From Owenia fusiformis (Eukaryota; Annelida; Polychaeta; Sabellida; Oweniidae), in assembly GCA_903813345.2 (NCBI GenBank), contig CAIIXF020000002.1, positions 18,736,813 through 18,800,812 of the forward strand: a DNA stretch of 64,000 bases, read 5' to 3'. Shown here in pieces: positions 820 through 47,523 of the stretch. Made by a program: the position numbers and the translations under genes. The notes beneath the pieces were generated by a model. The model made no database searches and was not told where the DNA came from. It was given only the letters and a program-made list of their open reading frames with translations. Numbering within the stretch: the first letter of the stretch is position 1; each line of letters opens with the position of its first letter.

Positions 820-2853
820 AAAGCCACGCCCCTTTATCTTTGTTTCGCTTTTAATAACCTTAAACCACTCCACATTTTCGTTTTTTCGCTTTTTTAGGTA
901 AAGCAACGCCCTTCTATTGTATTTTTCTTCTAATTACCTTAAACCACGCCTCTTTTCGTTTTTTTTCGGTTTTTTAAACAAAGCCACGCCCCTTTATCGT
1001 ATTTTGCTTTTAATTACCTTAAACCACGCCTCTTTTTCGTTTTTTTTCGTTTTTTACTGTAAGCCACGCCCCTTTATCGTTTTTCGCTTTTAATTACCTT
1101 AAACCACGCCTCGTTTTCGAGTTTATTTCGTTTTTTACGCTAAGCCACGCCCCCTTTATCATTTTTCGCTTTAAATTACCTAAAACCACGCCTCTTTTTC
1201 GATTTTTCCTTTTATCAGTTTTTCGCTTTAAATTACCCTAAACCACGCCTCTTTTTCGATTTTTTCGTTTTTTACTGTAAGCCATGCCCCTTTATCAGTT
1301 TTTCGCTTTAAATTACCTTAAACCACGCCTCTTTTTCGATGATTTCGTTTTTTTAAGCTAAGCCACGCCCCCTTTATCAGTTTTTCGCTTTAAATTACCT
1401 TAAACCACGCCTCTTTTTCGAGTTTATCGGTTTTTTTTTACTGTAAGCCACGCCCCTTTATCGTTTTTTTCGCTTTAAATTACCTTAAACCACGCCTCTT
1501 TTTCGATTTTTTTCGTTTTTTAAGCTAAGCCACGCCCCCCTCTATCAGTTTTTTGCTTTAAACTACCCTAAACCACGCCTCTTTTTCGATTTTTTTTCGT
1601 TTTTATACTGTAAGCCACGCCTCTTTTTCGATTATTTCGTTTTTTTACTGTAAGCCACGCCCCTTTATCGTTTTTTTCGCTTTTAATTACCTTAAACCAC
1701 GCCTCTTTTTCGATTTTTTTTTAGTTTTTTACGCTAAGCCACGCCCCCTTTATCATTTTTTCGCTTTAAATTACCTTAAACCACGCCTCTTTTTCGATTT
1801 TTTAGTTTTTATACTGTAAGCCACGCCTCTTTATCGTTTTTTTCGCTTTTAATTACCTTAAACCACGCCTCTTTTTCGATTTTTTTTCGTTTTTTTACGC
1901 TAAGCCACGCCCTTTTTATAATTTTTTCGCTTCCATTACCTTAAACTACCCTAAACCACGCCTCTTTTTCGATTTTTTTTCGTTTTTATACTGTAAGCCA
2001 CGCCTCTTTTTCGATTATTTCGTTTTTTTACTGTAAGTTACGCCCCTTTATCGTTTTTTTCGCTTTTAATTACCTTAAACCACGCCTCTTTTTCGATTTT
2101 TTCGTTTTTTAAGCTAAGCCACGCCCCCTTTATCAGTTTTTCGCTTTAAATTACCTTAAACCACGCCTCTTTTTCGATTTTTTTTGTTTTTTTTACTGTA
2201 AGCCACGCCCCTTTATCGTTTTTTTCGCTTTTAATTACCTTAAACCACGCCTCTTTTTCGTTTTTTTTTTCGTTTTTTAAGCTAAGCCACGCCCCCTTTA
2301 TCAGTTTTTCGCTTTAAATTACCTTAAACCACGCCTCTTTTTCGATTTTTTTCGTTTTTTTTTACTGTAAGCCACGCCCCTTTATCGTTTTTTTCGCTTT
2401 TAATTACCTTAAACCACGCCTCTTTTTCGATTTTTTCGTTTTTTTTAAGTTAAGCCACGCCCCCTTTATCAGTTTTTTACTTTAAATTACCCTAAACCAC
2501 GCCTCTTTTTCGATTTTTTTTCGTTTTTATACTGTAAGCCACGCCTCTTTTTCGATTATTTCGTTTGTTTACTGTAAGCCACGCCCCTTTATCGTTTTTT
2601 CGCTTTTAATTACCTTAAACCACGCCTCTTTTTCGATTTTCTTCGTTTGAATACACTAAGCCACGCCCCTTTATCGTTTTTTTCGTTTTAATTACCTTAA
2701 ACCACGCCTCTTTTTCGATTTTTTCCGTCTCACACTAAGCCACGCCCCCTTTATTATTTTTTTCGCTTTAAATTACCTTAAACCACGCCTCTTTTTCGAT
2801 TTTCCGTTTTTTACATAAAGCCACGCCCCTTTATCGTTTTTATACAAAGCCCT
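820..2853. repeat. CCACGCC-rich dimeric minisatellite, copy A
   Basis: About 25 tandem units of roughly 80 bp. Each unit is a diverged dimer of two 40-bp halves, one reading AAGCCACGCCCCTTTATCG and the other AAACCACGCCTCTTTTTCG, separated by T-rich tracts and TTAATTACC. Unit length varies through poly-T tract changes. The opposite strand carries GGGCGTGG or GAGGCGTGG about every 40 bp, the core recognised by Sp/KLF-type zinc fingers. No coding potential is seen. The array begins at the truncated retrotransposon and ends at the low-copy DNA. The same array recurs, shorter, at 43321. Confidence 0.93.
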
Positions 2854-3113
2854 CTATGGTATTAACTGTATTCTTCTTTAATTTGGCGCTACTTCCTAAC
2901 ATCTGTCTTTATCTTGACATGAATTAACAAACTATTATATTAGGAAACATGCCAGAAATTAACATTATTTATTGATGGTCATCTTTACATCTCTTAACCC
3001 TGGGGTATTCCCCCTCTAAATTAATCTTTGTAAATGGCACAAGATTTTGATGACCTACTCCAACCATTTAAAAAGTAGTCAGATTCAATTTATTGTTTGT
3101 ATTTTGATTTCAG
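2854..3113. other. Low-copy DNA, intron-like
   Basis: AT-rich sequence with no open frame, duplicated at 44540-44799. It ends in a pyrimidine-rich tract and TTTCAG, a good 3' splice site for the exon-like block that follows. It may be the end of an intron. Confidence 0.5.
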
Positions 3114-3236
3114 ATTTTATAAATTGTATCATGATTTTCAAGTGCTCTTCAATAATCAGTCAATGGAGGATGAATTGATACGCTTGGTTGATGATATTAA
3201 AGTTCTCCAAATATTAGGGGAAGTATCCATTAATGG
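3114..3236 (+). pseudogene. Candidate exon 1 of a spliced gene fragment, copy A
   Basis: An acceptor (ATTTTGATTTCAG) is followed by 123 nt open in one frame and then a donor (GG|GTAAAA). The product includes MEDELIRLVDDIKVLQILGE, with an acidic helical look. Phase allows joining to the block at 3540. I do not recognise the protein family. The block is conserved at 44800-44922, but there the donor reads GG|TTAAAA, which would destroy this splice site. It may be the relic of a host gene or of a transposon gene with introns. No upstream exon was found in the window. Confidence 0.4.
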
Positions 3237-3539
3237 GTAAAACCAATAGATTTCATTATTTAAAATCTGTTTCTTGTTGGCAGTCAGGAACACTATCTGC
3301 AACAAATGTTACGCTTTTGTCACCCTTTTATATGAGTTATTTTACATTTTTGCTAGAACCAGAAAAATAGTGGAGCTGTTTTGTTACACTGTCAAATGAC
3401 AATTTTTGTCATTTTTAAAATGGCAGCCAATTTATGGCTGTTACCTAGTTATGAACTGTGAAGCATTATATTATCCTGCAATAAACTCCTTCCTTTTCAA
3501 ATAAAATCAGTGTCAATGTATATACTTAATATTTTCTAG

Positions 3540-3645
3540 GTGGGTTTACAGTCGGCAGTATACTTGTGGACCCCTATGTGTTAAGAGAGCAAGTGATAAG
3601 CCTTTAAAATTGAACCCTTCAATGACTGTATCATGTCCCACGTAG
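3540..3645 (+). pseudogene. Candidate exon 2 of the same fragment, copy A
   Basis: An acceptor (ATATTTTCTAG) precedes a frame that continues in phase from the 3114-3236 block and reads WVYSRQYTCGPLCVKRASDK. The frame stops at TAG 3643-3645. The same place also gives a possible donor (CCCAC|GTAGGA at 3642), which would splice with a 45-nt intron to the block at 3687. Such a short intron is possible but unproven. The copy at 45220 has the same frame. Confidence 0.35.
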
Positions 3646-3686
3646 GAGGGTAGGTGGGTATGAGGTAGGAAGTTTTTTATACCAAG

Positions 3687-3870
3687 CCGAGAGAGATGCA
3701 GCGAACACACCAAGTTAATGCGACAGCTGGATCAGTTTTTCGACAACTTTGTGCCATCAGATCCAGTCCAAGTAAACAGTATCATGGGCGAGAGGTGTTC
3801 GTGTTCCTGTCACTTACACCCCAGTCACATTTGTCGCACGGAGGCCGTGCGTCGATCGCAGATCAATTAA
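3687..3870 (+). pseudogene. Candidate exon 3, Cys/His-rich C-terminus, copy A
   Basis: After ATACCAAG (3' splice-like) an open frame in phase with block 2 runs to TAA at 3868-3870. It encodes a helical stretch (KLMRQLDQFFDNFVPSDPVQ) and then a Cys/His-rich tail (CSCSCHLHPSHIC), which suggests a metal-binding finger. I do not recognise the family. An ATG-initiated ORF at 3696-3878 is in a different frame and is not favoured. In copy B this block is split by a 436-bp MITE at 45456. Confidence 0.35.
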
Positions 3871-5165
3871 ATCAGTGAATTTCTGCGGCGAGCGTAGAAA
3901 AACTACGTTTGCCTTGCGGTCTCCGTCCGGCGTATCCAGTTTTTTACAGGCCGCAGGGTAGCCGTAGAAATTAAAACTCGGAGTTATAATATTTGTTCAT
4001 ATCTGCGATCCCCGTAGAAATCAACAGGCCGTTGCCAGACCACAGAAAGGTCCAACGATGGCCGCACGTCGGGTTCCGTTGACTTGCTTCTACTGTAGGG
4101 TTTGATGGGTAATGTACCTTTGGAAACAGTTTTTATGTCAGTTTTCGGTCATATATTTGCTGTAAACGCAACAAAGTACGTATACTTTTTGATGTAAGGC
4201 CAGCAACTTATATTTCACTTACACTTTTTATTTGATACTATATCCTAAGACTACAAACAACATTTATAAATCGTATTGATGTAGATAAAATAAAAAGAAC
4301 AATTAACGTTAAATCAACAGAAATTCAAAAACTCAGACTTATAATATTTGTTCATTTCTGCGGTCCCCGTAGAAATCAACAGGCCGTTGCCAGACCACAG
4401 AAAGGTCCAACGATGGCCGCACGTCGGGTTCCGTTGACTTGCTTCTACTGTATGGTTTGATGGGTAATGTACCTTTGGAAACAGTTTTTATGTCAGTTTT
4501 CGGTCATATATTTGCTGTAAACGCAACAAAGTACGTATACTTTTTGATGTAAGGCCAGCAACTTATATTTCACTTACACTTTTTATTTGATACTATATCC
4601 TAAGACTACAAACAACATTTATAAATCGTATTGATGTAGATAAAATAAAAAGAAGAATTAACGTTAAATCAACAGAAATTCAAAAACTCAGACTTATAAT
4701 ATTTGTTCATTTCTGCGGTCCCCGTAGAAATCAACAGGCCGTTGCCAGACCACAGAACAGTCCCACGGTTGCCGCACATTGACTTGCGTCTGCCGTAGTG
4801 TTTCGATGCGTGATATTCATTTGGAAACAGTTTTAGGTCAGGTTTGCTGTCGTATCTTTGCTGTAAACATAGCGTAATAGATATACTGTTGTAGATATAA
4901 CTGTTGTATTACCATAGCAACCTATACTACAAAAGATTAAGTTACTTATGGTCAATGTAATATCCAGCACTTTTATAAATTGAACTAATGTAAATGAATT
5001 AAAAATAAACAACGTTTATCAGCAGATATTCAAATTTCGCCGTGAAGCTGCCGCAGGAAATGTGACTGCAAAACTATCCTACCCCAGAAATTCTACGGAG
5101 AGCGACGTAGAAATGTTACTGACCGCAGAAATGACAAACCGCACGTTTGCCGTAGGAAATGTGAC
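3871..5165. repeat. CTGCGG/CCGTAG-motif region with 355-bp tandem repeat, copy A
   Basis: The region is peppered with short motifs such as CCGTAGAAAT, CTGCGGT and GCCGCAG in both orientations. A 355-bp unit is repeated, with unit starts at 3984, 4339 and 4694 (spacing exactly 355). The first two units are almost identical; the third diverges after about 85 bp. Copy B (from about 46094) has one unit fewer. Dense inverted short motifs resemble the subterminal repeats of DNA transposons, but no terminal inverted repeats were found. Confidence 0.75.
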
Positions 5166-5335
5166 TTGGGTGTTACTAACCAACCAACTAATGAACCAGA
5201 TAACCACCAGACCACCAAAAAGGGTAAAACTAACTAACCAATTAACTAATTAATCAACCAACTAACCAACACTCCATCCAACGAACAAAACAACCAACGA
5301 ACCAGACTGCAACAAACGAACCAGATGACCAAGAT
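5166..5335. repeat. (AACC/AACT)-rich low-complexity tract
   Basis: Repeated AACCAACC/AACTAACC words on the plus strand; shorter in copy B (46970-47100). No function inferred. Confidence 0.85.
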
Positions 5336-5349
5336 CATGGATCTAGTGT

Positions 5350-5415
5350 CTTGTATTGTATTGTATTGTTTTGAATTGTATTGCATTGTATTTTTTGTAT
5401 TGTATTTGTTTTTCG
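5350..5415. repeat. (TATTG)n microsatellite
   Basis: Imperfect pentanucleotide repeat with point changes, also present at 47125-47180. Confidence 0.85.
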
Positions 5416-5664
5416 TTGACCAATACTTACTCAGTAATGATTCAATTTCAAAGTTCACCTCAAGTACTACTCAAGATCTAAATTTTGAAGGTCTGAAGTC
5501 TTGTGTTCATTTTAGCTACAGTTGTAGATTGAAGGGTATTTTCTTTTGGGTGTAATTTTAATTTAAAGGTATTCATGTAAAATTGTTGGCTTAGTTTCGG
5601 GATTTTCTTTGTTTTTAATTGAATCATCTCTGATCTTTTCCTTAAATGTACTTTGAGGTGCATT

Positions 5665-5742
5665 CCTCTTGCCTTGGAGAAATTAAAGTGAAACATAAAA
5701 GAAAAAAACACAGAGAATCTACAATTTGTGCTACCCATCTGC
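5665..5742 (+). repeat. 5' copy of a long direct repeat flanking the retrotransposon, copy A
   Basis: About 80 bp starting CCTCTTGCCTTGGAGA matches 18938-19020, immediately after the retrotransposon's 3' tail, at roughly 80-85% by eye. The foldback element inserted in its last bases. It is best read as an old, unusually long target-site duplication. Confidence 0.65.
5737..5742 (+). repeat. 6-bp target-site duplication, left
   Basis: ATCTGC directly precedes the left inverted terminus. The same six bases follow the right terminus at 17491-17496, and the uninterrupted copy B site has them once (47516-47521). Confidence 0.9.
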
Positions 5743-6126
5743 TATGGTGTAAATTCTGTGTCAAAAGTATTACATACCTAATTCAGTAGTTTGGGTGCAC
5801 CAATATAAAAACCAGTGCCTATTTTCTATTCCTGACATATTTAGTGGAAAGTCCGGTACCTATCTCTATATTAGATGCCTGTTTAAAATTAGGTGACCCA
5901 ACTTTATTTTTCGGTCACCTAATTTTATCTGGTACCCGGATTCTGTACTATGATAAATATTTAGCTCAATTGTTCTCTCAATCGGTACTGGAATCAATTC
6001 CGTATCCAAAAACATTCATTACGTTAAAAAGTCCGGTACCCGAAAAAATTCCGTACGTCGAAAAATCGGGTGCCGGAAAAAATTCCGTACGTCGAAAAAT
6101 CGGGTGCCGGAAAAATTCCTGGACCC

Positions 6127-6415
6127 GATTATCGCCTCCGTTTATTAAAAGATGTCGTGGTAATCGAGCGTCCATGATTTCTTGATCCAAAAATATGGAT
6201 CCGATTATCGCCTCCCTTTGTTAAAAGATGTCGTGGTAATCGAGCGTCCATAATTTCTTGAACAAAAATATGGATCCGATTATCGACACCCTTTATTAAA
6301 AGATGTCGTGGTAATCGAGCGTCCATAATTTCTTGAACAAAAATATGGATCCGATTATCGCCTCCCTTTGTTAAAAGATGTCGTGGTAATCGAGCGTTCA
6401 GATATTTCTTGGCCA
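6127..6415 (+). repeat. 75-bp subterminal tandem repeat, left arm
   Basis: Four units start at 6127, 6203, 6278 and 6353, each containing GATTATCG and AAAAGATGTCGTGGTAATCG. Mirrored at about 16834-17110. The period is divisible by three, which explains the repetitive ORFs read through it. Subterminal repeats of this kind often bind a transposase. Confidence 0.88.
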
Positions 6416-7142
6416 AAGATAGGCTATGTACCTGATTGATTTTGAAAGAATTTCTGGCCAGGGGGGGGCAACCAAATTGGGGACGATGAAAAAAAGCCCC
6501 ATAATCATCATCAACATCTTGTTTAGGAGGGTGAGGTTTAGTCCTGTGTTATCCTCCCTTCTGGTTTGTTTAGTAACAGTGTTCATATTAGCGGTTCTAT
6601 CTTTGTTATTTTATATCCCAAAGACAATTGCACGTTGTGGGGGGAATGGCAGTTGTGGTGGGGGGCAGTTGCACCAAAATTTGGTGCAACCAATTGTAAT
6701 TGGACAAAAAACTGGACAAATAATGAAAGGCCCACCTGTTTTAGTGTCCAAAAAGATTTTGTAATTGATGATGATGATTGATGATGCAACTTTGAAATAG
6801 CCGCCAGTAAATCCATCCAATCAGGACTCTTGTAACAAATAACGCGTGGGCAAAGTGTCAAACAATCAAATTAAGGCTTACTTATTCCGGATGGCGGATA
6901 TAAAATTAATCTGTTATCGTACGGTTTTTGGGAGTGGTGACTTAGACAATGTCCTGAGACATCACCTGTAGTAAATACGCATATGTCATGCAATCTGTAT
7001 TAATGGTGAGAGGTCTCGTTCGGGGGGCCTGGGAGACAAGGTCTAGCAGCTAAGCTTCCCCTAACCACCGTCAGTACTCATGTGACGGGTCGTGTATATT
7101 TGTTAGATCCTAGGATAATGACATTGGTGTGTTAATTATCTT

Positions 7143-7279
7143 CATTCACGTAGAGAGAGGCCGGACATCCCGATCCTGTAGCGGATCTTCTCCCTTATGT
7201 TGGTCATTATAAGGGCCCAAGATGTTTCGAACTCATGGGGGTATCCCATGATTGTTCTTCCTCAGCGGCCGAAAGAATG
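7143..7279 (-). ncRNA. Type I hammerhead ribozyme motif, left arm (HHR-L)
   Basis: Read on the minus strand. Stem I has outer CATTC (7279-7275) with GAATG (7147-7143) and inner GGCCG (7270-7266) with CGGCC (7163-7159). The core is CTGAGGA (7265-7259). An extra A (7258) is followed by stem II: GAAC/GTTC plus CATGGG/CCCATG. Then comes GAA (7228-7226). Stem III is ACATC (7225-7221) with GATGT (7169-7165). The triplet is GTC, with predicted cleavage after C 7164. All invariant core bases are present. Stem III carries an insertion of about 50 nt that holds two further hairpins. An extra nucleotide after A9 is known from a natural viroid hammerhead. Self-cleavage has not been shown. Confidence 0.82.
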
Positions 7280-7689
7280 TTGTATGTGATTTGATTCTGA
7301 ATGATAATGCTGTTTTATTTCTATCATTCAGTTGTATTTTAATAGGTTTCCCGTATTCGTTTTTGGCGGGAGGGGTGGTTGTTTATGCGTATTGGTTTAT
7401 TGCATAAAGGTGCATTGTGGTCAGTTTATTGATAAATTTTGGTTTGGTTTGGTTTGTGGTTAGGCCATATGGTCGTGTATGTTATATGTTGATATTGTGT
7501 GTATTTAAATGGTTGTTGGCTTGTGCGTGTTCGGTTGTATCTTGTGGCATTTTGTGGTGTTTTCAATTTGTTGAGTTGGTGTGCGTTTGGCGGTGACTGT
7601 GGTAGGTTAATGGTGGGTGAATAGCTTTTTGGTAGTTCAGGTGGTTTTTTAGTGTTTCAGCTTTCCGTTGGTATATGTGATATGTTGCT

Positions 7690-8620
7690 AGTATATCTTG
7701 TTGTTGAGATATTAACTTAAATGTACCGTTTAGTGGTCCGTATTTCCAATATTTCGATTTTCTTGTATTTTGTTTTAATCGAACGCATATGCGTATTGGT
7801 TAATTGTATTGGGGTATGGTCAGTTCAGTGTTGGAATTTGGTTTGGTTGTTTATGCTCTTTGCGCTTCATTGTCATGTGTGTTTTGTGTTGATATTTTGT
7901 GTGTTTGAGGAGGCATTAATTTGTTCGTGTATGGTTGTATTTTTTATTTTCCGGCATTTTGCGGTATTTTCGATTTGTTAAGTCGGTTTGAGTTTGGTGG
8001 TGACTAGGATGGGTCTATGGTAGGTAAATTGTCATTTGATGGTTCGGGTGGCTTGTTTAATGTTTTAGCTTTCTGTAGCTAGGTATGTGCATTATGTTCG
8101 TGGCATGTTTTGTTGTTGAGATATTAACTTAAATGTAGGGTTTGATGGCCGTATTTCAAATATTTTGATTTTCCCATATTTGTGTTTATTGAGAGGGTGT
8201 ATGCGTATTGCTTAATTGCATCAGGGTATGGTCAGTTCAATGTCGTAATTTTATTTGCTTGTTTTGTTCATTGTTTCAGGTTCATGGTCATGTATATGTT
8301 ATGTTCATATTGTGTGTATTTGAAGAGTTGTTAGCTTTTCCGTGTTTGGTCGCGTTTTGGTGTTTTCGGCATTTTGCGGTATTTTCGATTTGTTAAGTCG
8401 GTTTGAGTTTGGTGGTGACTAGGATGGGTCTATGGTAGGTAAATTGTCTTTTGATGGTTCAGGTGGCTTGTTTAATGTTTTAGCTTTCTGTTGGTGTGTG
8501 TATTATGTTGGTGGTATATCATGTTGTTGAGATATTAACTTGAATGTAGGGTTTCGTGGTCCGTATTTCAAATATTTTGATTTTCCCATATTTGTTTATT
8601 ATGAACTTGTTTGCGCATAA
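7690..8620 (+). repeat. 411-bp tandem repeat, left arm
   Basis: The block around GAGATATTAACTTAAATGTA recurs at 7706, 8118 and 8529 (spacing 412 and 411), with a degenerate fourth near 8800. Mirrored on the right arm at about 14711, 15123 and 15533. ORFs such as 7721-7981 and 8208-8396 are shadows of this T/G-rich repeat. Confidence 0.8.
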
Positions 8621-9660
8621 CTGTTTTTTTGGTTTAATCTGAGTTTTGCGGTGTTTTGGTTTGTAGATGTGGTGTTGGTTTGGTGGCGTATGTGGTACGC
8701 ATTTGGTGGGTTAATTTGTTTAGAATGGTTTGGTTGTTCTGTGTTTTGTTTTGGCTTCGTGTTGGTGTGTGTGTTGTGTTGGAGGCATGTTTTGTTGTAG
8801 AGATATTGACTTGATTTTGGGGGCTGTCTTCCCGTATATGAATATTCTTGTTTTCCGTGTGTTGCTGAATTGTTGTCGGTTTTATAGGAAGACGTCGCAC
8901 TTTATTAATTCCCTTAAGTTTGGTTAAAAGGGGCGATATTTTTAAGATTGGTAGGTAAGATTGATTTTGGTGAGTTCGAAGTGTATCAATGAGTAAGGTT
9001 ATATTGTTGGTGTCGGTAGTTGTTATATGTATTTTTTTGTATATGTGTGTTTGTAATTGGTTGTTATATTCATTCATTCATTCATTCATACAGTCATACA
9101 TTGGTAGGTTATTTCAAGGAATTTGGGTTATAATTCATAAATGTAATAACTCGATCTTTTGGTAGAGATAGGTGGCCCTGAAAAGGGCCGGGGTTTGTTG
9201 AAGATTGTTATCTGCTGCGTTGCTTAGGTGTCGTGGCTTGTTTCCTTTTTGATTTGTATTCTGAAGCTGTGTTTCGTAGTTCTTTGGTTGTTTTCTCTGC
9301 TTCAGTTTTACCCATTGTACTGGCCAGTTTTTTTGTGAGGGTGTCCACCTGTTTTTTTGTGGAAGGCAAGTCTTGTTTGGCTGTGTAGGGTGGCCGCATC
9401 TTTCAAGTCGTTCCCGCATTTGTACAATATTGCGTCGAACAATTCTTTGATGTCAGTCGTGTCTTTTTCGGGTACCCCACATGGTATTTTGGGGATGAGC
9501 CCTTTTGGGATCCCCGAGAGCGAGTTGGTAATTGCAAGCTTCTGGTTTGGCTATTAGTTCCGGACAATTAGTTTTATTGTTTTAAATTTGTGTTTTCTTG
9601 TCTGTTTTAATGGCCTGTAGTTCTGCTTGTGGTGCGTTGTTTTGGGTTTGGGTGGTCTTG
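8621..9660. other. G/T-rich inner domain, left
   Basis: Strongly G/T-biased on the plus strand (TTGGTTTGT-like words), including an (ATTC)n microsatellite at about 9068-9092. The 147-aa minus-strand ORF at 8634-9077 is a low-complexity N/T/Q-rich shadow. I see no supported gene. The complementary A/C-rich domain lies at 13200-14300. Confidence 0.6.
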
Positions 9661-9985
9661 TTTTGTTTGTCCAGGGTTGTAGTTTAATAAGGTAATGAGA
9701 TCCAATGAACAACAAGAAAGTACCTCATCAGAACCAAAGAACAACGCAAGACTAACGCCCATCATTCCAGATGTACTTCTCACACTAGAGATCTCACTAT
9801 GTATGAATAGGTACCAAACCTATTACATATACTAACAATGTACACAAATACATTGAACTATTGACTCTACCAAGAATTAACAAATATACCTACAATATAA
9901 TACCCCAAACCACTAACTTGTATCTAAACTCCACGATACACCAAACAGGCCCGTCAGATGGGGGGGGGGGGGGTGCGATGGGTGC
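9661..9985. other. Foldback core, transition region
   Basis: The G/T bias ends at about 9690 and mixed sequence follows, ending in a G homopolymer of about 14 nt at 9961-9974. No gene seen. Confidence 0.5.
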
Positions 9986-11500
9986 GACCCCACCCCCACC
10001 CTTTGACACCCCCCAAAAAAAATTTAAAAATTAAAAAAGAAATTTTGAATTTTTTTTTTTTGGTAATTCTTTTTCATCATCTCATACACTTTTAAAGTGC
10101 CCAGAAAGCATCAAATAACATCTTAAAATTGTAAAATTTCCTAGAGGGAGTCGGCCACCCCTCACATCCCCCTCAATACAATGGAAAAGTTCTGAATTTA
10201 TTTTATGTATTGTCTCAGACACTTTTAAAGTGCCCAAGTGCCCACACATCATCACATAGCTCCTTGATATAGTCAATATTTCTGGGAGACTAACACTTGC
10301 TCCCCTTAGGGATCCCCATCCCACCTCCCCCTCTGGCACCCTCACCCCCCCTTGACACCCCTCCAAAAAATTTAAAAAAACTGTGATTTTCTCAATTTTT
10401 TAATTAACTCATACACTTTGAAAGTGCCCAGAGAGCACTAAATAGCGTTTTAAAATTGTAAAATTTTCTAGGGGGAGTGGACCACCCCTCACACCCCAAA
10501 AAAACAATTGAAAAGTTCTGAATTTATTTTATGTATCATCTCAGACACATGTAAAGTGCCCAGACATCATCAAATAGCTCCTTGATATAGTCAATGATTC
10601 TGGGAGACTAACACTTACTCGCCCTCTTGCATCACCACCCCACCTCCCCCTCTGGCACCCCCTCCCCTTTGACATCCCCCAAAATATTGTGATTTTTTCA
10701 AAATTTTTTTATCGTGTCATAGACTTCGAAAGTGCCCAAATAGCACCAAATAGCATCTTAAAATTGTAAAATTTTCCAGGGAAGTAGGCCAACCCTCACA
10801 TCCCCCACAAAACAATTGACAAAAATTCTGAATTTATTTCATGCATTGTCTCAGACACTTTTAAAGTGCCAAAACTTCATCAAATATCACCTTGATATGG
10901 TCAATGTTTCTGGGGGCAGATATGGGGGACAAACACTTGCTCCCCCTCTGGCACCCTAATCCCACCCTCCCCTCTGGCATCCCCTTTGACACCCCCAAAA
11001 ATTGAAAAAAATGTAATTTCGATTGACTCATACACTTTAAAAGTGCCCAGAAGCACTAAATATCATCTTAAAATTGTAAAATTTTCTGAAGGAGTTGGCC
11101 AACCCTCACACCCCCACAAAACAATTGAGAAAATTCTGAATTTCATGTATTGTCTCAAGACATTTTTAAAGTGCCCAGACATCATAAAATGGCACCTTGA
11201 TATGGTCATTGTTTCTTAGGGCAACCCCTCGCTCCCCCTCTGGCACTCCACACCACTTCACCCTCTCATTCTCTTTGACATCCTCAAAAAGAATTTGAAA
11301 AAAATTCACTTTTTATTGACTCATTCACTTTAAAAGTGCCCAGAAAGCACCAAATGGCATCTCAAAAGTGTAAAATTTTCTAAGGGGAGTGAGTCACTCC
11401 TCACAAGTTTGGAAGTTGCATTTGTTATTTTAAACACTTTAAAAGTGCCTAGAAGTCACCAAGTGACATAATGAAATCATAAAAACATACAAATTTCTGG
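9986..11500. repeat. 310-bp dimeric tandem repeat with CACTTT/AAAGTG palindromes
   Basis: About five units of 293-322 bp, becoming more diverged to the right. Each unit has two related halves, each holding a near-palindrome of the form CACTTTTAAAGTGCCCA. Occurrences include 10086, 10218, 10408, 10545, 10721, 10853, 11030, 11158, 11323 and 11430, with weaker ones near 11538 and 11660. Between them are CACCCC-rich tracts and TTAAAATTGTAAAATTTTC. The ORFs crossing it (10082-10366 minus, 10986-11219 plus) are not supported as genes. Confidence 0.88.
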
Positions 11501-13190
11501 CAGCCCACTCCAAAAACTAAAGCATTCATTTACTCAAACACATTAAAAGTGCTCAGCATTAACCAGACAGCAACTTGAATTAGTAAAATTTTCCTTGCTG
11601 CCCCCCTAAGAAGAAAATGATTGAAAAAAATCTGAATTTCGTATCAATAGATTCTATTTAAATTAAAACACCTTGAAAGGGTCCAGAAATCACTAAATGT
11701 GATCTTGAACTGCTAAAAGTTCTCGGGCATTTATGCCCTTCCAGTAAGAGGGGGAGAAACACCAGGGTTCAAAGATGATATACGCTTATAATGTAAATCT
11801 GTATTGAGATGACATCGTCGCCGATTGGTCAAAAGTCGACAAACAAATGACGTCATCAATGGCGGTTTCAAAATTTTCGAAATACGCTTCGAATAATATT
11901 ATGTTCATTTCTGGCGTGTTAACCAATATCGTAGCTTCTCATTTGACATCAAGATAAAGAAAGGTGTACGGAATATGCCTATATCAATCAAAACATCCCA
12001 TCGAAGTGTAGTATATGATTACTAGCCGATGAAATTATGAACGAACGAAGGTGGTTAGCAAGAGAGGTAATTATGTCTGTCATCTTTAAACTCTGGGGCT
12101 TTCCCTCCTCTTCTTCCAGTCGAAATGTTGAGGCATGCGCAGACCTCTATTTAGTGATATTTTCATTTCAAATATGGCGGCCAATCCGATGTCTGACGAC
12201 CCTTACAAAGAATCTAGGCAGTTTGCATTTTTACCTCCTGTGAAATAACAAGTGGAATTTAGTAGTTGTTTTGTGTTTTATTATCATTCTGCATCGTAAT
12301 TCTATGTGATGTGGTGTTGAAATGTCAGCAGAAATACATATCCATACGATAATCGAGTGAATCAGATAACAGATTTTTCGAAAACCCGTCTCGTGCTAAG
12401 AGTGTAAAAACTTGTATTAACATGCTCAAAAGTGCCAATGTGCACATCAATGTCAAGCTAAATCAATGTTGTGTCTAAAACAGGTACCCGATCTACTCAA
12501 AACAGCTTGTCATTCACGTATACACGCTTAGCAAACACGGCGAAATGACCTGAATCTTGGAATTTCGTTTAAGAGCTAGTAATGTTTGCTCCGGTCTTCG
12601 TCATAAGTGTTCATCAGATTTCACGCATGCGCAGGAGAAAAACCATAAACCAATTAGGTTTATAAATCAATTTTGCGCATGCGCCTTACAACGGTAAACA
12701 AATTCGTATTTATAAACGAACCAGTTTGAGATAACCCGATATCAGTCGGAGAAATCTGACGATCTACGAAACTCACTTCAAAAAATCAAATGCGGACTGA
12801 CGGCGTATTCTACTATGCTTGGATCTAAGATTTTCAGTATAGATAAAGTCTTTTATGATCTTTCGAATGAGGTAAGTCTCTAGTTCGAAAGACAATCGTA
12901 TCAACTTGAACAAAAGTTGAGTTTTGACGAAAAATGTTAACATGCGCAGAAGTCCCATTTTCGTTGTACCATATTGACTGCTTCTACAACCTCCCCCTAT
13001 TCCAGTGTTTCTCCAAATTTCTCATACAATATTCAGTCTAAAAACAATACGAAAACAATAAAATTCTACAAAATAACCGACCCCCTCCCCCCTTTGACTT
13101 ACGCAATTTGATTTATGCGGCAAAAAATTGACAATTTTATTTTCTCTTTAGTTAAAACCGCACCCCCCTTGGAGAAAAGTGTCTTACGGG
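11501..13190. other. Foldback unique core
   Basis: Apparently single-copy in the window. It holds an inverted CCAAT box (GATTGG, near 11823), a perfect CRE-like TGACGTCAT (11848-11856), an AATATGGCGGCCAATC stretch near 12171, several CATGCGCA motifs (near 12132, 12626, 12675 and 12939), and a 7-5-7 palindrome, ATAAACC/GGTTTAT, at 12645-12663. A 68-aa ORF (12037-12243) is unrecognised and weak. Promoter-like, but no transcript is demonstrated. Confidence 0.45.
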
Positions 13191-14310
13191 CCTGCCAAAA
13201 CACAATCCGGCATAACCTGCCTCTTAATACATAACCTATCACAACCAACCATTACAACTAAGCACAACCTAGAAGATCGCCAACAACGCAACAAAACCTA
13301 TGTCAGAAGAATCAGAACGCAACCTGACTCACAATTACCAAGAACACTGTCAAATTAGCACAACACAATTTGGCAATACCACACAACCAAACCAAACAAT
13401 CAAAACACAATCAGGAACAACCAAACTAGAATCCCAATACACACAACCAACTTTCTCGAACTGGAGATTACAACAATCACACAACACAATCGAACACAAC
13501 CAAATACTTCACCCGACTAGGCACAACCGACCACATATCATATCATAATCGGGCACAACCCGCCACCATCCATCATTAAACGATCAGGCACAACCAACCA
13601 CACAAAACAATCAGACATGACCTGATACCTCACCCGACTGAGCACAACCTTCCGCCCGACCAGAACAACACAATCACAACATAACACAACGCATTATGAA
13701 CACAATGAGGCACAGCTCGACACCAAGCTAAAACAAAACAACCAGACACAACCCAAATACAAACAAACAACACAATACGGCACAACCCAATACTACAACC
13801 TTATTTTTACCTCCGAAAACATATCCAATTGTCAAATATACGGCACAGTAAGATGAAATAAGATGAAGTAACCCGACCAACACAACACAATAACAACATA
13901 AGACATCCTTTGAAATTAACATAACTTAATGAGACACAACCCGATACCAAACTTACACAAGACAACCGGGCTCAACTAGACAAACAACCACCAAAACACA
14001 ATCGACTATCAAACTAACACAATCGAGCACAACCAAACAACAAACCGACAAAACACAACATAGCCAACGAGGCCAAACTCAAATCAGCCCATTGTTGAAT
14101 TAACACAACACAACCTGACACCAACCACCGCAACAGAACCAGTCACAACCCAATACTGAATCAATTATAAACTACACCATTAAATACAATTAGACACAAC
14201 CTGCAAACACAACTAAACTATGATACCAATTTACCTAGTACCCAACTAACTGTCTCCAACTGGAGACAATCCCAAAACAAACCAAAATCAGGGACAACCC
14301 ATCCCCCTCC
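13191..14310. other. A/C-rich inner domain, right
   Basis: Strong A/C bias on the plus strand (CACAACC, ACACAA words), the compositional mirror of 8621-9660. No direct alignment is obvious, so it is probably a decayed or low-complexity part of the fold. ORFs here are shadows. Confidence 0.6.
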
Positions 14311-14314
14311 TCCT

Positions 14315-14452
14315 CATTTAGGCTGCTGATGAAGAACATATCATGGACCACCAACCATGAGTTCGAAACATCTTGGGCCCTTACTGTGACTCACAAGTAA
14401 GGGAGAAGATCCACTACTGGATCGGGATGTCCGGCCTTTCTCTACACAAATG
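14315..14452 (+). ncRNA. Type I hammerhead ribozyme motif (HHR-R1)
   Basis: Stem I has outer CATTT (14315-14319) with AAATG (14448-14452) and inner AGGCTG (14320-14325) with CGGCCT (14432-14437). The core is CTGATGA (14326-14332). An extra A (14333) is followed by stem II: GAAC (14334-14337)/GTTC (14361-14364) plus CATGG/CCATG. GAA is at 14365-14367. Stem III is ACATC (14368-14372)/GATGT (14426-14430), with triplet GTC ending at 14431. Relative to HHR-L, the outer stem I pair C-G became T-A and an inner C-G became a T-G wobble, so pairing is kept. Two hairpins lie in the stem III insertion. This is the best preserved plus-strand copy. Confidence 0.82.
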
Positions 14453-14675
14453 ACACCACCAATGTCATCATTCTAGGATCAACTAAATATACTCTACCTG
14501 TCACATATTCGCTGACGGTGGTTCGGGGAAGCTTAGACACTAGTCTAGACTATGTCTCCCAGGTCCTCTAAACGAGACCGCTCACCATTTGACACAGATT
14601 GCATGACTTATGCGTGTTCAAAACGGGTGATGTCTCAAGACATGGTCTAAGTCAACCACTCCCAAAACTTTGAAA
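14315..14675 (+). repeat. LTR-like direct repeat 1 carrying HHR-R1
   Basis: It aligns with 15963-16320 from the ribozyme through CACTCCCAAAA, including TGACGGTGGTT, GGGGAAGCTTAG, TGTCTCCCAGG and CAGATTGCATGAC, with many point differences. Spacing between the two copies is 1,652 bp. Confidence 0.75.
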
Positions 14676-15962
14676 TACGGGCCATCAAACCTTACATTTA
14701 AGTTAATATCTCAACAACAAGATATGCCACGAACATAATACACATACCTACAGAAAGCTAATACATTAAACAAGCCACCTGAACCATCAAAAGACAATTT
14801 ACCTACCATAGACCCATCCTAGTCACCACCAAACTCAAACCAACATAACAAATCGAAAATATCGCAAAATGCAGAAAACACCAAAACGCGGCCAAACATG
14901 GAAAAAGTCAACAACTCTTATAATACACACAATATGAACATAACATTTACCTGACCATGAAGCTGAAACAATGAACAAAACAACCAAATTAAATTTCAAC
15001 ATTGAACTGACCATACCCTGATGCAATTAACCAATACGCATACACCCTCCCGATAAAACACAAATATGGGAAAATCAAAATATTTGAAATACGGGCCATC
15101 AAACCCGACATTTAAGTTAATATCTCAACAACAAAACATGCCACGAACATAATGCACATACCTACAGAAAGCTAAAACATTAAACAAGCCACCTGAACCA
15201 TCAAAAGACAATTTACCTACCATAGACCCATCCTAGTCACCACCAAACTCAAACCGACTTAACAAATCGAAAATACCGCAAAATGCCGGAAAATAAAAAT
15301 ACAACCATACACAAACAAATTAATGCCTCCTCAAACACACAAAATATCAACACAAAACACACATGACAATGAAGCACAAACAATGAACACAACAACCAAA
15401 CCAAATTCCAACACTGAACTGACCATACCCCAATACAATTAACCAATACGCATACGCGTTCGATTAAAACAAAATACAAGAAAATCGAAATATTTAAATA
15501 CGGACCACTAAACGGTACATTTAAGTTAATATCTCAACAACAAGATATACTAGCAACATATCACATATACCAACGGAAAGCTGAAACACTAAACAAATTA
15601 CCTGATCTACCAAAAAGCTATTCACCCACCCTTAACCTACCACCATCACCGCCAAACGCACACCAACTCAACAAATTGAAAACATCACAAAATGCCACAA
15701 GATACAACCGAACACGACCAAGCCAACAACCATTTAAATTCACACAATATCAACATATAACACGAAACGGCCATATGGCCTAACCACAAACCAAACCAAA
15801 CCAAAATTTATCAATAAACTGACCACACCTTTATGCAATAAACCAATACGCATAAACAACCACCCCCCCCCTCCCGCCAAAAACGAATACGGGAAACCTA
15901 TGAAAAAACAACTGAATGATAGAAATAAAACAGCATTATCATTCAGAATCAAATCACATACA

Positions 15963-16113
15963 ACATTCTTTCGGCCGCTGAGGAAGAACAATCATGGGAT
16001 ACCCCCATAAGTTCGAAACATCTTGGGCCCTTATAATGACCAACATATAAGGGAGAAAATCCGCTACAGGATCGGGATATCCGGCATGAAGATAGGGAAT
16101 AACACACGAATGT
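15963..16113 (+). ncRNA. Degraded hammerhead motif, right arm (HHR-R2)
   Basis: Mirror partner of HHR-L, with the same core: CTGAGGA (15978-15984), extra A, GAAC/GTTC stem II and GAAAC. Two changes weaken it. Stem III is GATAT (16076-16080) instead of GATGT, giving a C-A mismatch next to the cleavage site, and the 3' strand of stem I is CGGCA instead of CGGCC. The outer stem I pairing ACATTC/GAATGT (15963-15968/16108-16113) is kept but the loop is longer. Probably slow or inactive. Confidence 0.7.
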
Positions 16114-16833
16114 CATTACCCTAGGATCTAACAAATATACACGACCCGTCACATGAGTACTGACGGTGGTTAGGGGAAGCTTAGCTGCTAGACCTTGTCT
16201 CCCAGGCCCCCCGAACGAGACCTCTCACCATTAATACAGATTGCATGACATATGCGTATTTATTACAGGTGATGTCTCAGGACATTGTCTAAGTCACCAC
16301 TCCCAAAAACCGTACGATAACAGATTGATTTTATATCCGCCATCCGGAATAGGCAAGCCTTAATTTGATTGTTTGACACTTTGCCCACGCGTTATTTGTT
16401 ACAGGAGTCCTGATTGGATGGATTTACTGGCGGCTATTTCAAAGTGGCATCGTCAATCATCATCATCAATCACAAAATCTTTTTTGGACACTAAAACAGG
16501 TGGGCCTTTCATTATTTGTCCAGTTTTTTGTCCAATTTTAACCAAATTTTGGTGCAACTGCCCCCCCCCCCCACAACTGCCATTCCCCCCACAACGTGCA
16601 ATTGTCTTTGGGATATAAAATAACAAAGATAGAACCGCTAATATGAACACTGTTACTAAACAAACCAGAAGGGAGGATAACACAGGACTAAACCTCACCC
16701 TCCTAAACAAGATGTTGATGATGATTATGGGGCTTTTTTTCATCGTCCCCAATTTGGTTGCCCCCCCCCCCCCTGGCCAGAAATTCTTTCAAAATCAATC
16801 AGGTACATAGCCTATCTTTGGCCAAGAAATATC

Positions 16834-17110
16834 TGAACGCTCGATTACCACGACATCTTTTAACAAAGGGAGGCGATAATCGGATCCATATTTTTGTTCA
16901 AGAAATTATGGACGCTCGATTACCACGACATCTTTTAATAAAGGGTGTCGATAATCGGATCCATATTTTTGTTCAAGAAATTATGGACGCTCGATTACCA
17001 CGATATCTTTTAACAAAGGGAGGCGATAATCGGATCCATATTTTTGTTCAAGAAATCATGGACGCTCGATTACCACGACATCTTTTAATAAACGGAGGCG
17101 ATAATCGGGT
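16834..17110 (-). repeat. 75-bp subterminal tandem repeat, right arm
   Basis: Inverse of 6127-6415. A 165-codon ORF (16758-17255) reads through it as a 25-residue repeat containing ARLPRHLLTKGGDNRIHIF. This follows from the 75-bp period and is not by itself evidence of a protein. Confidence 0.85.
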
Positions 17111-17490
17111 CCAGGAATTTTTCCGGCACCCGATTTTTCGACGTACGGAATTTTTTCCGGCACCCGATTTTTCGACGTACGGAATTTTTTTGGGTACCGG
17201 ACTTTTTAACGTAATGAATGTTTTTGGATACGGAATTGATTCCAGTACCGATTGAGAGAACAATTGAGCTAAATATTTATCATAGTACAGAATCCGGGTA
17301 CCAGATAAAATTAGGTGACCGAAAAATAAAGTTGGGTCACCTAATTTTAAACAGGCATCTAATATAGAGATAGGTACCGGACTTTCCACTAAATATGTCA
17401 GGAATAGAAAATAGGCACTGGTTTTTATATTGGTGCACCCAAACTACTGAATTAGGTATGTAATACTTTTGACACAGAATTTACACCATA

Positions 17491-17496
17491 ATCTGC
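17491..17496 (+). repeat. 6-bp target-site duplication, right
   Basis: ATCTGC directly follows the right terminus and matches 5737-5742. Confidence 0.9.
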
Positions 17497-17499
17497 AGC

Positions 17500-18937
17500 A
17501 TTTGTATCTACATACCTCGGCAGGGAGATAATATTTCTCCGACATTATTCACAATCTTTGTAAATGATCTCGTTACGGAAATAAAAAGGCTTAATGCAGG
17601 TGTCGATATCGCAGGAGACAATGTAAGCATATTACTGTATGCTGATGATGTTGCATTGATCGCAACAACTGAATTAAAGCTGCAACAAATGCTGAACTGT
17701 CTTCATGATTGGATATATAAGTGGTGACTGACTGTAAATGTTGAAAAAACGAAAGTAGTGCACTTTAGGAGAGCGTCGACAATGTTAACAGAAACAATAT
17801 TTGTGCTAGGAGATGCAAAAATTGGAAAAATAAACTCTTATCGCTATCTGGGAGTTGTTATGAATGAGACTCTTGACTACACTGAAATGGTTTCCACTCT
17901 AGCTGATGCAAGTTCTCGATCCCTTGGCGCTCTTATTGGAAAATATTATTCGATTAATGGACTTCATTATTCGACATTCACAAAGATGTATAATGCAACC
18001 GTTATCCCCATCATGGATTACGGGGCTGGAGTTTGGGGCTATAAAGACTACGACAAACCAAATACTGTCCAAAACCATGCCATGAGAACATTTATGGGCT
18101 TAGGGAAATATGCTCCCATTCCAGCTATGTATGGAGATATAGGCTGGATACCACCATGTGTTAGGCACCATGTTGAAATGGTTCGTTTATTCATCCGACT
18201 TAGTAGAATGCCAAGAACAAGGATTACTCGAAGAATATTTGACTTTGACTATGCCAATGCTGAAAAATGCCATAGAGGATGGTGTAAAGAGGTCAAAGAT
18301 ATATTTAAAAATTCTAACCTGTTAGACCTCTATAATGAACGTTTCTTTAATAATTCAAGTGCAAGGTCAACATTTAAAACTGTAAAAGATTATGAAATGA
18401 ATCGCTTTATACATAAATGGACAGTTCAAATAACTACAATGCCAAAGTTACGTACATATAAGTTAATTAAAGACAATTTTGGTACAGAGGATTATATAAA
18501 ATTATTTTTATCAAGGAATCAAAGATCTGTTATTGCTAGAACTCGGTCAGGTACTCTTCACCTGAACATAGAAACTGGTCGATATAAAGGCCTTGCTGTT
18601 GAACAAAGACTCTGTGAGGCATGTAAATGTGGACATATAGAAACTGAGAAACATGTTTTTCTAGAATGCTCTTGTTACAAAGATTTGAGAAAAACTATAA
18701 TCAGACCCCCTATGGTTCATGATAATCAAGATTTACTGAAACATCTTCTTTCAAATAAAAATTGTGTAAAACTTACAGCAAAATTTATAATGTCAGCACT
18801 TGAAAAACGACAAAAAATTGTATAAATAACACACTGTAATTACATGTATATGTATTTGTATAATGCCTCATAAGCCTGATTAGGCTGGGTGCCGATTAAG
18901 GTGCGTGGCACTTAAATAAATAAATAAATAAATAATA
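17500..18937 (+). pseudogene. Non-LTR retrotransposon, 5'-truncated, copy A
   Basis: The frame opens within the reverse transcriptase at the RQGD.ISPTLF motif (block 5 region) and includes the catalytic LLYADDVALIA. It then continues through the thumb and a long C-terminal domain to a Cys/His motif (CEACKCGHIETEKHVFLEC) and a stop at 18823-18825. A TGA at 17725-17727 interrupts it; copy B has a sense codon there. The frame is otherwise open for 355 codons to 18825. The 3' UTR has hairpins GCCTGATTAGGC and GTGCC/GGCAC (18889-18911) and a (TAAA)n tail. The endonuclease and the first RT blocks are missing. It belongs to the Jockey/I group; the exact clade is uncertain. Dead copy. Confidence 0.88.
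18913..18937 (+). repeat. (TAAA)n tail of retrotransposon A
   Basis: Short tetranucleotide tail directly before the 3' flanking direct repeat; longer in copy B (48921-48951). Confidence 0.9.
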
Positions 18938-19020
18938 CCTCTTGCCTTGGAGAGAACAAGAAGAATTACAAAAGCAAAAACCACAGAGAATCTACAATTT
19001 ATGCTACCTATAATCTGCAG
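18938..19020 (+). repeat. 3' copy of the long direct repeat flanking the retrotransposon, copy A
   Basis: Matches 5665-5742: CCTCTTGCCTTGGAGA, then CACAGAGAATCTACAATTT, ending ATCTGCAG. The ORF at 18947-19183 begins here and is not supported as a gene. Confidence 0.65.
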
Positions 19021-20047
19021 CACGGTGAATGCTGCGCCTAGTATGCAGGGTATTGTAGGGGGAGACTTAACTACAATTGCATTGTTGACAATACATCACT
19101 CCCAAAACAATGAAGATGACTTAGGTAGAGAGTTTGGAACTGGAAAATTTATCAGTTTATCATTTATCTATGCAACAGACTAAGTAAACACAATTAACTG
19201 AACGATTATTTATATGTGTGAAAACCACATGCATTTGTATAGGGTAACTTCTGCGTTCAGGTTTACGTTTCGATTTGATAACTTAAGTCTCAAATGAGTT
19301 GACAATGTACAGATTACAACGATATTACATTTGCAATCACTAATCGATGAATATGCTTCACAACAAGCAAGGAAACTATTTTTGTCAATTGGGAAGAATT
19401 CATGAAAATCAAATTCAAATTTGTTTTAGTGTGACAAGACCGGACCCTTAAAGTACAAGTTTAGGTATATGTTTTCAAAACAACCTTATTCGCAACATCC
19501 TTTATCGAAACATCTCTGAGATTGAGTTATCGACTTTAATAAATCTAAGAATAACAGATCCTAGAGTAGCCCAGCTTAAAAGGCTTTCTACAGGCATCTC
19601 TATCATTCATTTGTATATGATTTTGTAACGAAGCTTTTCAAATCTGCTTCATGACCTTTTATTTTTCATTTTTATTTTTTATTTTATTTTTTTCATGACC
19701 TTTTATGGTTGTTATTAGAATATCAGTTACTTATTTGTAGATTGCGCTGAGTTGAACAGGAATATGTGTTTAAAATGAATTCTGAAAATGTATTTCATAA
19801 ATTATAGCTATAGATGATCATGATCTTCACTATGAAGGTATAGACGGCAACATGTATATACTATTAGAATCAATTACCAGGTTATACATTTTTATCAATA
19901 GACTTAAAATACTACCTAATATGATAGGTAAAGAACAAATTTTATGAGGAACTCAATTGCAAATCGCATCATAAAATGAGTAAGTAATGATAATGTACAA
20001 GGGGCGATCAACAAATAACGCAAATAGAGCCTTATCTCAGAAACTAA

Positions 20048-20240
20048 TTGGAGTTAGAACACCAAATTTGATACATCGTATCACCATATCATCGTATTGA
20101 CCTGCTTCAAGTACCCATACCACGGGTTACTATGGTAACTGCAACTTTGACATATATCAATGTTTGTGCCTGTACTTTTCTGGAAATATTGATGAATGTT
20201 TGAAGATACTATGTACAATTAAGTATTCTAACTCCAACTC
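20048..20240. mobile_element. Possible small MITE with TTGGAGTTAGAACAC ends
   Basis: TTGGAGTTAGAACAC at about 20048 has a nearly exact inverse at about 20226-20240 (the copy B version at 50226-50241 is exact), enclosing about 165 bp. No clear target duplication was seen, so it could also be a non-mobile inverted repeat. Confidence 0.4.
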
Positions 20241-20242
20241 TC

Positions 20243-20304
20243 GTGAGTAATATGATATATTCACTCGTTCCCTCCAGTCACTCGTGAATATATCATATAC
20301 TCAC
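20243..20304. repeat. 22-bp inverted repeat near the satellite edge
   Basis: GTGAGTAATATGATATATTC (20243 on) pairs with GTGAATATATCATATACTCA (20284 on) with one bulge and a loop of about 19 nt. Repeated at about 50246-50307. Confidence 0.75.
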
Positions 20305-20433
20305 TTGAGTATAAACACGATAAACGGAATCAACAATTATATAACCTCATACTATCCTGTTTGTTTTTCTTACTGTATGGTGAATGATGTAAGATGGAAA
20401 AAGATCAAGATTATGCACCATTCAAATCTTTGT

Positions 20434-44525: not shown

Positions 44526-44799
44526 TTATACAAAGCCCTCAATGGTATTAACTGTATTCTTCTTTAATTTGGCGCTACTTCCTAACATCTGTCTTTATCT
44601 TGACATGAATTAACAAACTATTATATTGGGAAACATGCCAGAAATTAACATTATTTATTGATGGTCATCTTTATATCTCTTAACCCTGGGGTATTCCCCC
44701 TCTAAATTAATCTCTGTAAATGGTAGAAGATTTTGATGACCTACTCCAACCATTTAAAAAGTAGTCAGATTCAATTTATTGTTTGTATTTTGATTTCAG
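44526..44799. other. Low-copy DNA, intron-like, copy B
   Basis: Counterpart of 2854-3113, ending in the same TTTCAG acceptor. Confidence 0.5.
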
Positions 44800-44922
44800 A
44801 TTTTATAAATTGTATCATGATTTCCAAGTGCTCTTCAATAATCAGTCAATGGAGGATGAATTGATACGCTTGGTTGATGATATTAAAGTTCTCCAAATAT
44901 TAGGGGAAGTATCCATTAATGG
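44800..44922 (+). pseudogene. Candidate exon 1, copy B
   Basis: Same open frame as 3114-3236 with only silent or minor differences, but the donor is changed from GG|GTAAAA to GG|TTAAAA. If the block is an exon, splicing at this position is lost in this copy. Confidence 0.4.
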
Positions 44923-45326: not shown

Positions 45327-45366
45327 AGGGTAGGTGGGTATGAGGTAGGAAATTTTTTATACCAAG

Positions 45367-47443: not shown

Positions 47444-47523
47444 CCTCTTGCCTTTGAGAAATTAAAGTGAAACATAAAAGAAAAAACCACAGAGAATCTA
47501 CAATTTGTGCTACCCATCTGCAG
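47444..47523 (+). repeat. 5' copy of the long direct repeat flanking the retrotransposon, copy B
   Basis: Uninterrupted here. It ends CCCATCTGCAG directly before the retrotransposon and pairs with 48956-49038. Confidence 0.65.

What the first reader, a model, noticed from the sequence alone, without database searches (positions are those of the whole stretch)
7143..14452. Hammerhead ribozymes in the arms of a giant foldback element
Two sites, 7143-7279 (minus) and 14315-14452 (plus), have every invariant hammerhead part in type I order: CUGANGA, stem II, GAAA, stem III, GUC, stem I. Between them the outer stem I pair changes from CATTC/GAATG to CATTT/AAATG and an inner C-G becomes U-G, so helices are kept while sequence changes. 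Hammerheads are established in Penelope-like elements, retrozymes and schistosome satellites. I know of none in a DNA-transposon-like foldback, though I could not search.
Basis: partly seen in the sequence, partly recalled or inferred. Interest (0 to 1): 0.92.

Follow-up and report, generated by a model that had tools for sequence, protein, structure and literature searches.

The report
Hammerhead ribozymes inside a DNA transposon
A piece of animal DNA that looks like a transposon moving as DNA rather than through an RNA copy appears to carry sequences shaped like self-cutting hammerhead ribozymes, which in animals are known mainly from RNA-copied elements; whether these cut has not been tested.

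Summary
The two hammerhead motifs are real at sequence level: unbroken core, stems I-III and a GUC triplet, plus one extra A after A9. In 5,000 shuffled windows the same descriptor hit 27 times, none as good. Rfam finds no hammerhead. With the full downstream sequence added, the predicted fold loses stems I and III, so cutting would have to happen during transcription.

The host is an 11,748-bp insertion (5743-17490) with 2.8-kb inverted arms, TATGGTG...CACCATA ends and a 6-bp duplication (ATCTGC); the empty site survives in a paralogous flank at 47516-47521. TA..TA ends with 6-bp duplications match the published description of IS3EU/GingerRoot DNA transposons. No transposase was found.

Corrections: only the 7143 copy lies in an arm. 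Its true mate, 15964-16100, is broken, and the 14315 copy sits just inside the arm boundary. The claimed outer stem I covariation depends on the alignment.

Best reading: a non-autonomous, IS3EU-like foldback transposon carrying a hammerhead cassette that moved with it, probably of retroelement origin. There are no cleavage data, and no other genomic copies could be examined.

The parts
5737..5742 (.). left target-site duplication ATCTGC
   Evidence: left and right flanks overlap by 6 bases in the paralogous empty site 47516-47521
17491..17496 (.). right target-site duplication ATCTGC
5743..17490 (.). whole foldback element, 11,748 bp, ends TATGGTGTAAATTC...GAATTTACACCATA
5743..8572 (+). left terminal inverted arm (95% to the right arm; outer part differs at 3 of 897 aligned bases)
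14669..17490 (-). right terminal inverted arm
7143..7279 (-). hammerhead copy 1 (intact core; CTGAGGA 7265-7259, extra A 7258, stem II 7257-7254/7232-7229, GAAA 7228-7225, GTC 7166-7164, predicted cut after C7164)
14315..14452 (+). hammerhead copy 2 (intact core; CTGATGA 14326-14332, extra A 14333, stem II 14334-14337/14361-14364, GAAA 14365-14368, GTC 14429-14431, predicted cut after C14431)
15964..16100 (+). hammerhead copy 3, broken (GTC to ATC, 3' strand of stem I lost); the arm mate of copy 1
6926..7142 (-). conserved domain downstream of copy 1; folding no better than shuffles (z -0.32)
14453..14667 (+). conserved domain downstream of copy 2; folding only slightly better than shuffles (z -1.74)
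7335..8618 (-). about 414-bp tandem repeats, A/C-rich and G-poor on this strand, upstream of copy 1
14668..15857 (+). about 414-bp tandem repeats between copies 2 and 3
9946..13194 (.). nested insertion with CAGGCCCGT...ACGGGCCTG ends, in the centre of the foldback
47516..47521 (.). pre-insertion (empty) site in the paralogous flank copy

Best explanation
The element is a non-autonomous, IS3EU/GingerRoot-like foldback DNA transposon that carries a roughly 350-nt cassette: a type I-order hammerhead followed by a conserved downstream domain. One intact copy lies in the left arm, one intact copy just inside the right arm, and one broken copy in the right arm. The cassette was inside the element before it inserted here and moved with it as DNA. 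In transcripts running outward from the centre, the two intact hammerheads should cut after C7164 and C14431 as soon as they emerge, before downstream RNA refolds them, releasing the RNA before it reaches the element ends. Shown: motif, order, copy number, TIRs, TSD, empty site, arm divergence. Inferred: origin of the cassette from a retroelement, transcription, cleavage, and mobilisation in trans by an absent transposase.
For: Two intact cores with 4-bp stem II, 8-bp stem III and 5-6-bp stem I; 0 of 27 hits in 5,000 shuffles are as good. Folded alone the hammerhead is the minimum or within 0.1 kcal/mol of it. 2.8-kb TIRs, 6-bp TSD and surviving empty site. TA..TA ends with 6-bp TSDs are published IS3EU/GingerRoot features (PMC10045372 passages). 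Substitutions between arms are 56 of 1182 in the inner part and 26 of 634 around the cassette, against 48 of 2910, 18 of 939 and 17 of 968 between the paralogous flanks, so the arm differences look older than this insertion.
Against: No Rfam hammerhead hit. The extra A after A9 is non-consensus, and PMC3088659 (passages) reports that some natural core insertions, such as after A6 or near C3, cut cleavage strongly, while one in GAAA is tolerated. With downstream sequence the predicted fold loses stems I and III. The arm mate is broken. Covariation is not significant. No transposase and no Pfam family above its cut-off in six frames (one hit below cut-off, Reo_sigmaC_M 15.9 bits against 25). Only one element was seen; the genome search did not complete, so other copies could not be checked. 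Gene conversion could mislead the dating.
Confidence: 0.58

Rival explanations
1. The cassette is a fossil of a retrozyme or Penelope-like retroelement that inserted into the foldback and was duplicated with its arms; the transposon makes no use of it.
For: Most classical type I hammerheads of animal genomes are reported to lie in retrozymes (PMC7229834 abstract), others in Penelope-like elements (PMC6155905 passages). Two direct copies 1,652 bp apart in the right half would release a monomer if both cut. One of three copies is broken.
Against: No reverse transcriptase or other Pfam family above its cut-off in six frames of the element. No boundary or TSD of such an element was recognised. Published animal units are 150-450 bp with a helix III of two base pairs in invertebrates, and Penelope hammerheads usually lack helix III, unlike the 8-bp branched stem III here.
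Confidence: 0.45
2. The motif resembles a hammerhead but is inactive: a chance or decayed structure in a non-coding repeat.
For: No Rfam hit; extra A in the core; no covariation support; stems I and III lost in longer folds; one of three copies dead.
Against: All core letters are kept in two copies that differ at 18 of 134 aligned positions, and hits this good were absent from 5,000 shuffles. A natural hammerhead with an extra core nucleotide has been described (De la Pena and Flores 2001, title seen in reference lists; that the extra base sits at the same place and that the ribozyme is active is recalled).
Confidence: 0.25
3. The inverted structure is an assembly or sequencing artefact (false palindrome).
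For: Near-perfect outer arms (3 substitutions in 897 aligned bases).
Against: Precise 6-bp TSD, clean empty site, and inner arms that differ at 56 of 1182 bases.
Confidence: 0.02

Closest known systems
Metazoan non-LTR retrozymes with type I hammerheads (Cervera and de la Pena 2020, PMC7229834; abstract, section 13 and passages seen)
   Same: type I order, canonical core letters, animal genome, tandem repeats nearby
   Different: published units are 150-450 bp, with a two-base-pair helix III in invertebrates; here helix III is 8 bp and branched, there is an extra A, the two direct copies are 1,652 bp apart, and the host is a TIR element with a 6-bp TSD
Penelope-like elements / Terminons (PMC6155905 and PMC6431247, passages seen)
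   Same: hammerhead within repeated parts of a large element
   Different: their hammerheads are usually minimal and lack helix III; no reverse transcriptase was found inside this element
IS3EU/GingerRoot DNA transposons (PMC10045372, passages seen)
   Same: TA..TA ends and 6-bp TSD
   Different: no transposase left; 2.8-kb foldback arms with tandem repeats; hammerheads, which the passages I saw do not mention
Foldback transposons such as Tetris and Galileo (search listing only; arm structure partly recalled)
   Same: long inverted arms containing tandem repeats
   Different: no hammerhead mentioned in the listings seen

Membership tests
Hammerhead ribozyme | core CUGANGA...GAAA...NUH flanked by three helices | tested here: met
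   2 of 3 copies, with one extra A between A9 and stem II
Hammerhead ribozyme | match to a curated hammerhead covariance model | tested here: not met
   no Rfam hammerhead hit at gathering score or E<=10
Hammerhead ribozyme | hammerhead fold favoured in the predicted RNA | tested here: inconclusive
   favoured or nearly so when folded alone; stems I and III lost with downstream sequence
Hammerhead ribozyme | compensatory changes in helices | tested here: inconclusive
   2 of 45 pairs changed on both sides; 82 of 500 shuffles reach this
Hammerhead ribozyme | self-cleavage after NUH | not testable with these tools
   needs in vitro transcription
IS3EU/GingerRoot | TA..TA termini | tested here: met
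   TATGGTG...CACCATA (feature)
IS3EU/GingerRoot | 6-bp TSD | tested here: met
   ATCTGC on both sides, single copy in the empty site
IS3EU/GingerRoot | related DDD/E transposase | tested here: not met
   no Pfam family above its cut-off in six frames of 5743-17490; a non-autonomous copy would look the same, so membership is suggested, not shown
Foldback element | long inverted arms with internal tandem repeats | tested here: met
Metazoan retrozyme | tandem units of 150-450 bp, each with a type I hammerhead | tested here: not met
   two direct copies 1,652 bp apart; no hammerhead found in the 414-bp repeats
Penelope-like element | reverse transcriptase with hammerheads in the terminal repeats | tested here: not met
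   no RT domain in six frames of the element

The most novel reading that the evidence does not exclude
A DNA transposon family has adopted hammerhead ribozymes as working parts. Outward-facing ribozymes near each arm cut the element's own transcripts as they emerge and before they run through the inverted ends, for example to avoid double-stranded RNA from the arms and so silencing, or to give unpolyadenylated RNA ends. The downstream domain may act as a switch that later shuts the ribozyme. The extra A and branched stem III are then a hammerhead subtype that Rfam models miss.
Probability: 0.17. Interest if true: 0.85.

Novelty: new variant of a known kind. Interest (0 to 1): 0.56.

Why it matters
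Hammerheads in animal genomes are explained mainly by retroelements that spread through self-cut, circularised RNA. One inside an element that moves as DNA would separate the ribozyme from RNA-mediated spread and ask what else it does for mobile DNA. It would also suggest that a branched stem III with an extra core A escapes current covariance models, so more such motifs may be overlooked.

Tried and rejected
Rfam at gathering score on the whole window, and at E<=10 on three stretches (5000-17000, 14290-14690, 6900-7300): no hammerhead. First descriptor without an extra core nucleotide: 0 hits. One-mismatch core scan: the same 2 hits. My own covariance model, built from the three copies, finds just those three in the window, which says nothing about other hammerheads. 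Exact pattern scans of viral contigs (2) and prokaryote genome contigs (1) gave 0 matches, as expected for animal DNA. A degraded reading frame at 9311-9550 (-) had no homologue at E<=1. The LINE at 55336-58353 found 118 proteins with E<=0.001, best 39% identity, so the host species was not identified. That the downstream domain is a stably folded RNA was my first view; z-scores of -1.74 and -0.32 do not support it, though 5 of 96 pairs in the RNAalifold consensus of the whole alignment change on both sides. Polinton was considered because it also has 6-bp TSDs; TA..TA ends fit IS3EU better (Polinton ends are recalled). Assembly artefact rejected. Covariation as proof rejected.

Full report
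Observation. The minus strand at 7279-7143 and the plus strand at 14315-14452 each hold, in order, a stem I strand, CTGANGA, an extra A, GAAC...GTTC (stem II, continued by a longer hairpin), GAAA, an 8-bp stem III enclosing two further hairpins, GTC, and the other strand of stem I. The predicted cut sites are C7164 and C14431. A descriptor with stems of at least 4 bp and 0 or 1 extra nucleotide hits the window only at these two places. In 600 dinucleotide shuffles there were 2 hits and in 5,000 shuffles 27 hits; none of the 27 reaches stem III >=8 with stem I >=5, and 2 of 27 reach stem III >=6 with stem I >=5. The extra nucleotide was allowed after a first scan without it found nothing. Folded alone, the 14k copy has the hammerhead as its minimum (-41.5 kcal/mol; 0 of 200 shuffles fold as well); in the 7k copy the hammerhead is 0.1 kcal/mol above the minimum and 16 of 200 shuffles fold as well; for the broken copy it is 59 of 200.

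Against it. No Rfam hammerhead model reaches even E=10. I think the extra A and the long branched stem III explain this, but I could not test a trimmed version against Rfam. Covariation across the three copies is weak: 2 of 45 pairs change on both sides, matched by 82 of 500 shuffles; sliding the partners by 1-3 columns drops the cells paired from 89.5% to 29-49%, but the structure was derived from one of the sequences. Longer folds speak against the hammerhead at equilibrium: the RNAalifold consensus of 459 columns keeps stem II and two hairpins but not stems I and III. In single-sequence folding, stem I pairs have mean probability 0.90 (7k) and 0.86 (14k) when the RNA ends at stem I, and about 0.01 for both at full length; stem III falls from 0.53 and 0.37 to 0.00 and 0.01. 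So cleavage would have to occur as the RNA emerges, or the downstream part switches it off. PMC3088659 (passages) reports natural core insertions that lower cleavage strongly and one that is tolerated; none of the passages I saw covers the position found here.

A third copy. 15964-16100 (+) is the inverted-repeat mate of the 7143 copy and is broken: GTC has become ATC and the 3' strand of stem I is lost. The 14315 copy lies just inside the right arm's inner end (14669), so only one intact copy is in an arm. A covariance model made from the three copies finds exactly these three in the window.

The host element. The arms are 5743-8572 and 17490-14669, 95% identical. The flanking DNA has a paralogous copy at 44-50 kb that lacks the element. 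The left flank aligns up to 47521 and the right flank from 47516, so ATCTGC is the target-site duplication. The ends are TATGGTGTAAATTC...GAATTTACACCATA, and the 18-base end occurs, with up to 3 mismatches, only at these two places in the window. PMC10045372 (passages) states that complete IS3EU families have TA..TA termini and usually 6-bp TSDs, and that GingerRoot families have 6-bp TSDs and mostly TA..TA ends. No Pfam family above its cut-off was found in six frames at E<=0.1 (one hit below cut-off, Reo_sigmaC_M, 15.9 bits against 25), so membership in that superfamily is suggested, not proved.

Timing. Substitutions between the flank copies are 48 of 2910, 18 of 939 and 17 of 968. Between arms they are 3 of 897 in the outer part, 26 of 634 around the cassette and 56 of 1182 in the inner part. 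If rates are alike, the inner arm differences are older than the insertion, so the element arrived with its cassettes already diverged. The outer arms may have been homogenised. The 7k and 14k copies differ at 18 of 134 positions in the hammerhead and 37 of 208 in the downstream domain.

Architecture. The cumulative A+C minus G+T count turns at 9685: the left half is A/C-rich and G-poor on the minus strand, the right half on the plus strand, and the three hammerhead copies read outward. A nested insertion with CAGGCCCGT...ACGGGCCTG ends (9946-13194) interrupts the centre. Downstream of each hammerhead is a conserved domain of about 215 nt. Alone it folds little or no better than shuffles (z -1.74 with 13 of 200, and z -0.32 with 71 of 200). 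Its function is unknown.

Mechanism. My best reading is a non-autonomous DNA transposon that carries hammerhead cassettes as cargo or as a working part. Outward transcripts would be cut at C7164 and C14431. A transcript crossing the whole element would have its arms paired, which would probably hide the ribozymes; this is inference. The origin of the cassette in a retroelement is likely because that is where animal type I hammerheads are mostly reported. Its stem III differs, though, from the two-base-pair helix III of invertebrate retrozymes, from Penelope hammerheads that usually lack helix III and from the very short stem III of schistosome W-element hammerheads.

Literature. Searches listed no paper that I recognised, from title, start of abstract or opened passages, as reporting a hammerhead inside a TIR DNA transposon. 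The library is open-access only. Searches showed 20 of 24, 20 of 188 and 10 of 655 papers; the others showed all that matched. In PMC6431247 (passages) hammerheads and foldback elements are mentioned in separate contexts, and PMC12477314 (passage) speaks of Terminons. Precedent for an extra core nucleotide is the title of De la Pena and Flores 2001, seen in reference lists; that it lies at the same place as here is recalled.

Limits. The genome search tool did not answer in 13 attempts, the species is unknown, only one element was seen, and no activity was measured. That the DNA is animal is inferred from its LINE reverse transcriptases and their matches and the histone-type stem-loop.

Noticed in passing
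9149-9194 (-): Histone 3' UTR stem-loop-like hairpin, 33.5 bits against a gathering score of 34, E=1.4e-6, on the same strand as and upstream of the 7k hammerhead; it follows a degraded basic-tailed reading frame. A neighbouring frame had no homologue.
   Followed up: partly
9946-13194: Nested 3.2-kb insertion with CAGGCCCGT...ACGGGCCTG ends, a 310-bp tandem array and a possible 5-bp CCAAA duplication; hAT-like by recall only.
   Followed up: partly
7280-9684 (-), 13171-14314 (+) and 14668-15857 (+): Strongly A/C-rich, G-poor (about 9-12% G) strands upstream of the hammerheads, turning at 9685; unexplained.
   Followed up: partly
6926-7279 (-) and 14315-14667 (+): Predicted refolding: the sequence downstream of each hammerhead displaces stems I and III in longer folds, which could be a switch or a sign that the motif is not used.
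   Followed up: partly
7297-7331 (-): 10-bp perfect hairpin CTGAATGATA...TATCATTCAG just upstream of the 7k hammerhead (read by eye).
   Followed up: no
20513-55350: Long arrays of a 186-bp satellite, for example 79 copies at 26399-41115.
   Followed up: no
2801-5742 with 17491-20500, and 44486-50503: Segmental duplication that preserves the empty insertion site; contains a truncated reverse-transcriptase frame.
   Followed up: partly
55336-58353 (+): Long open frame with endonuclease and reverse transcriptase domains (LINE); best protein match 39% identity.
   Followed up: partly
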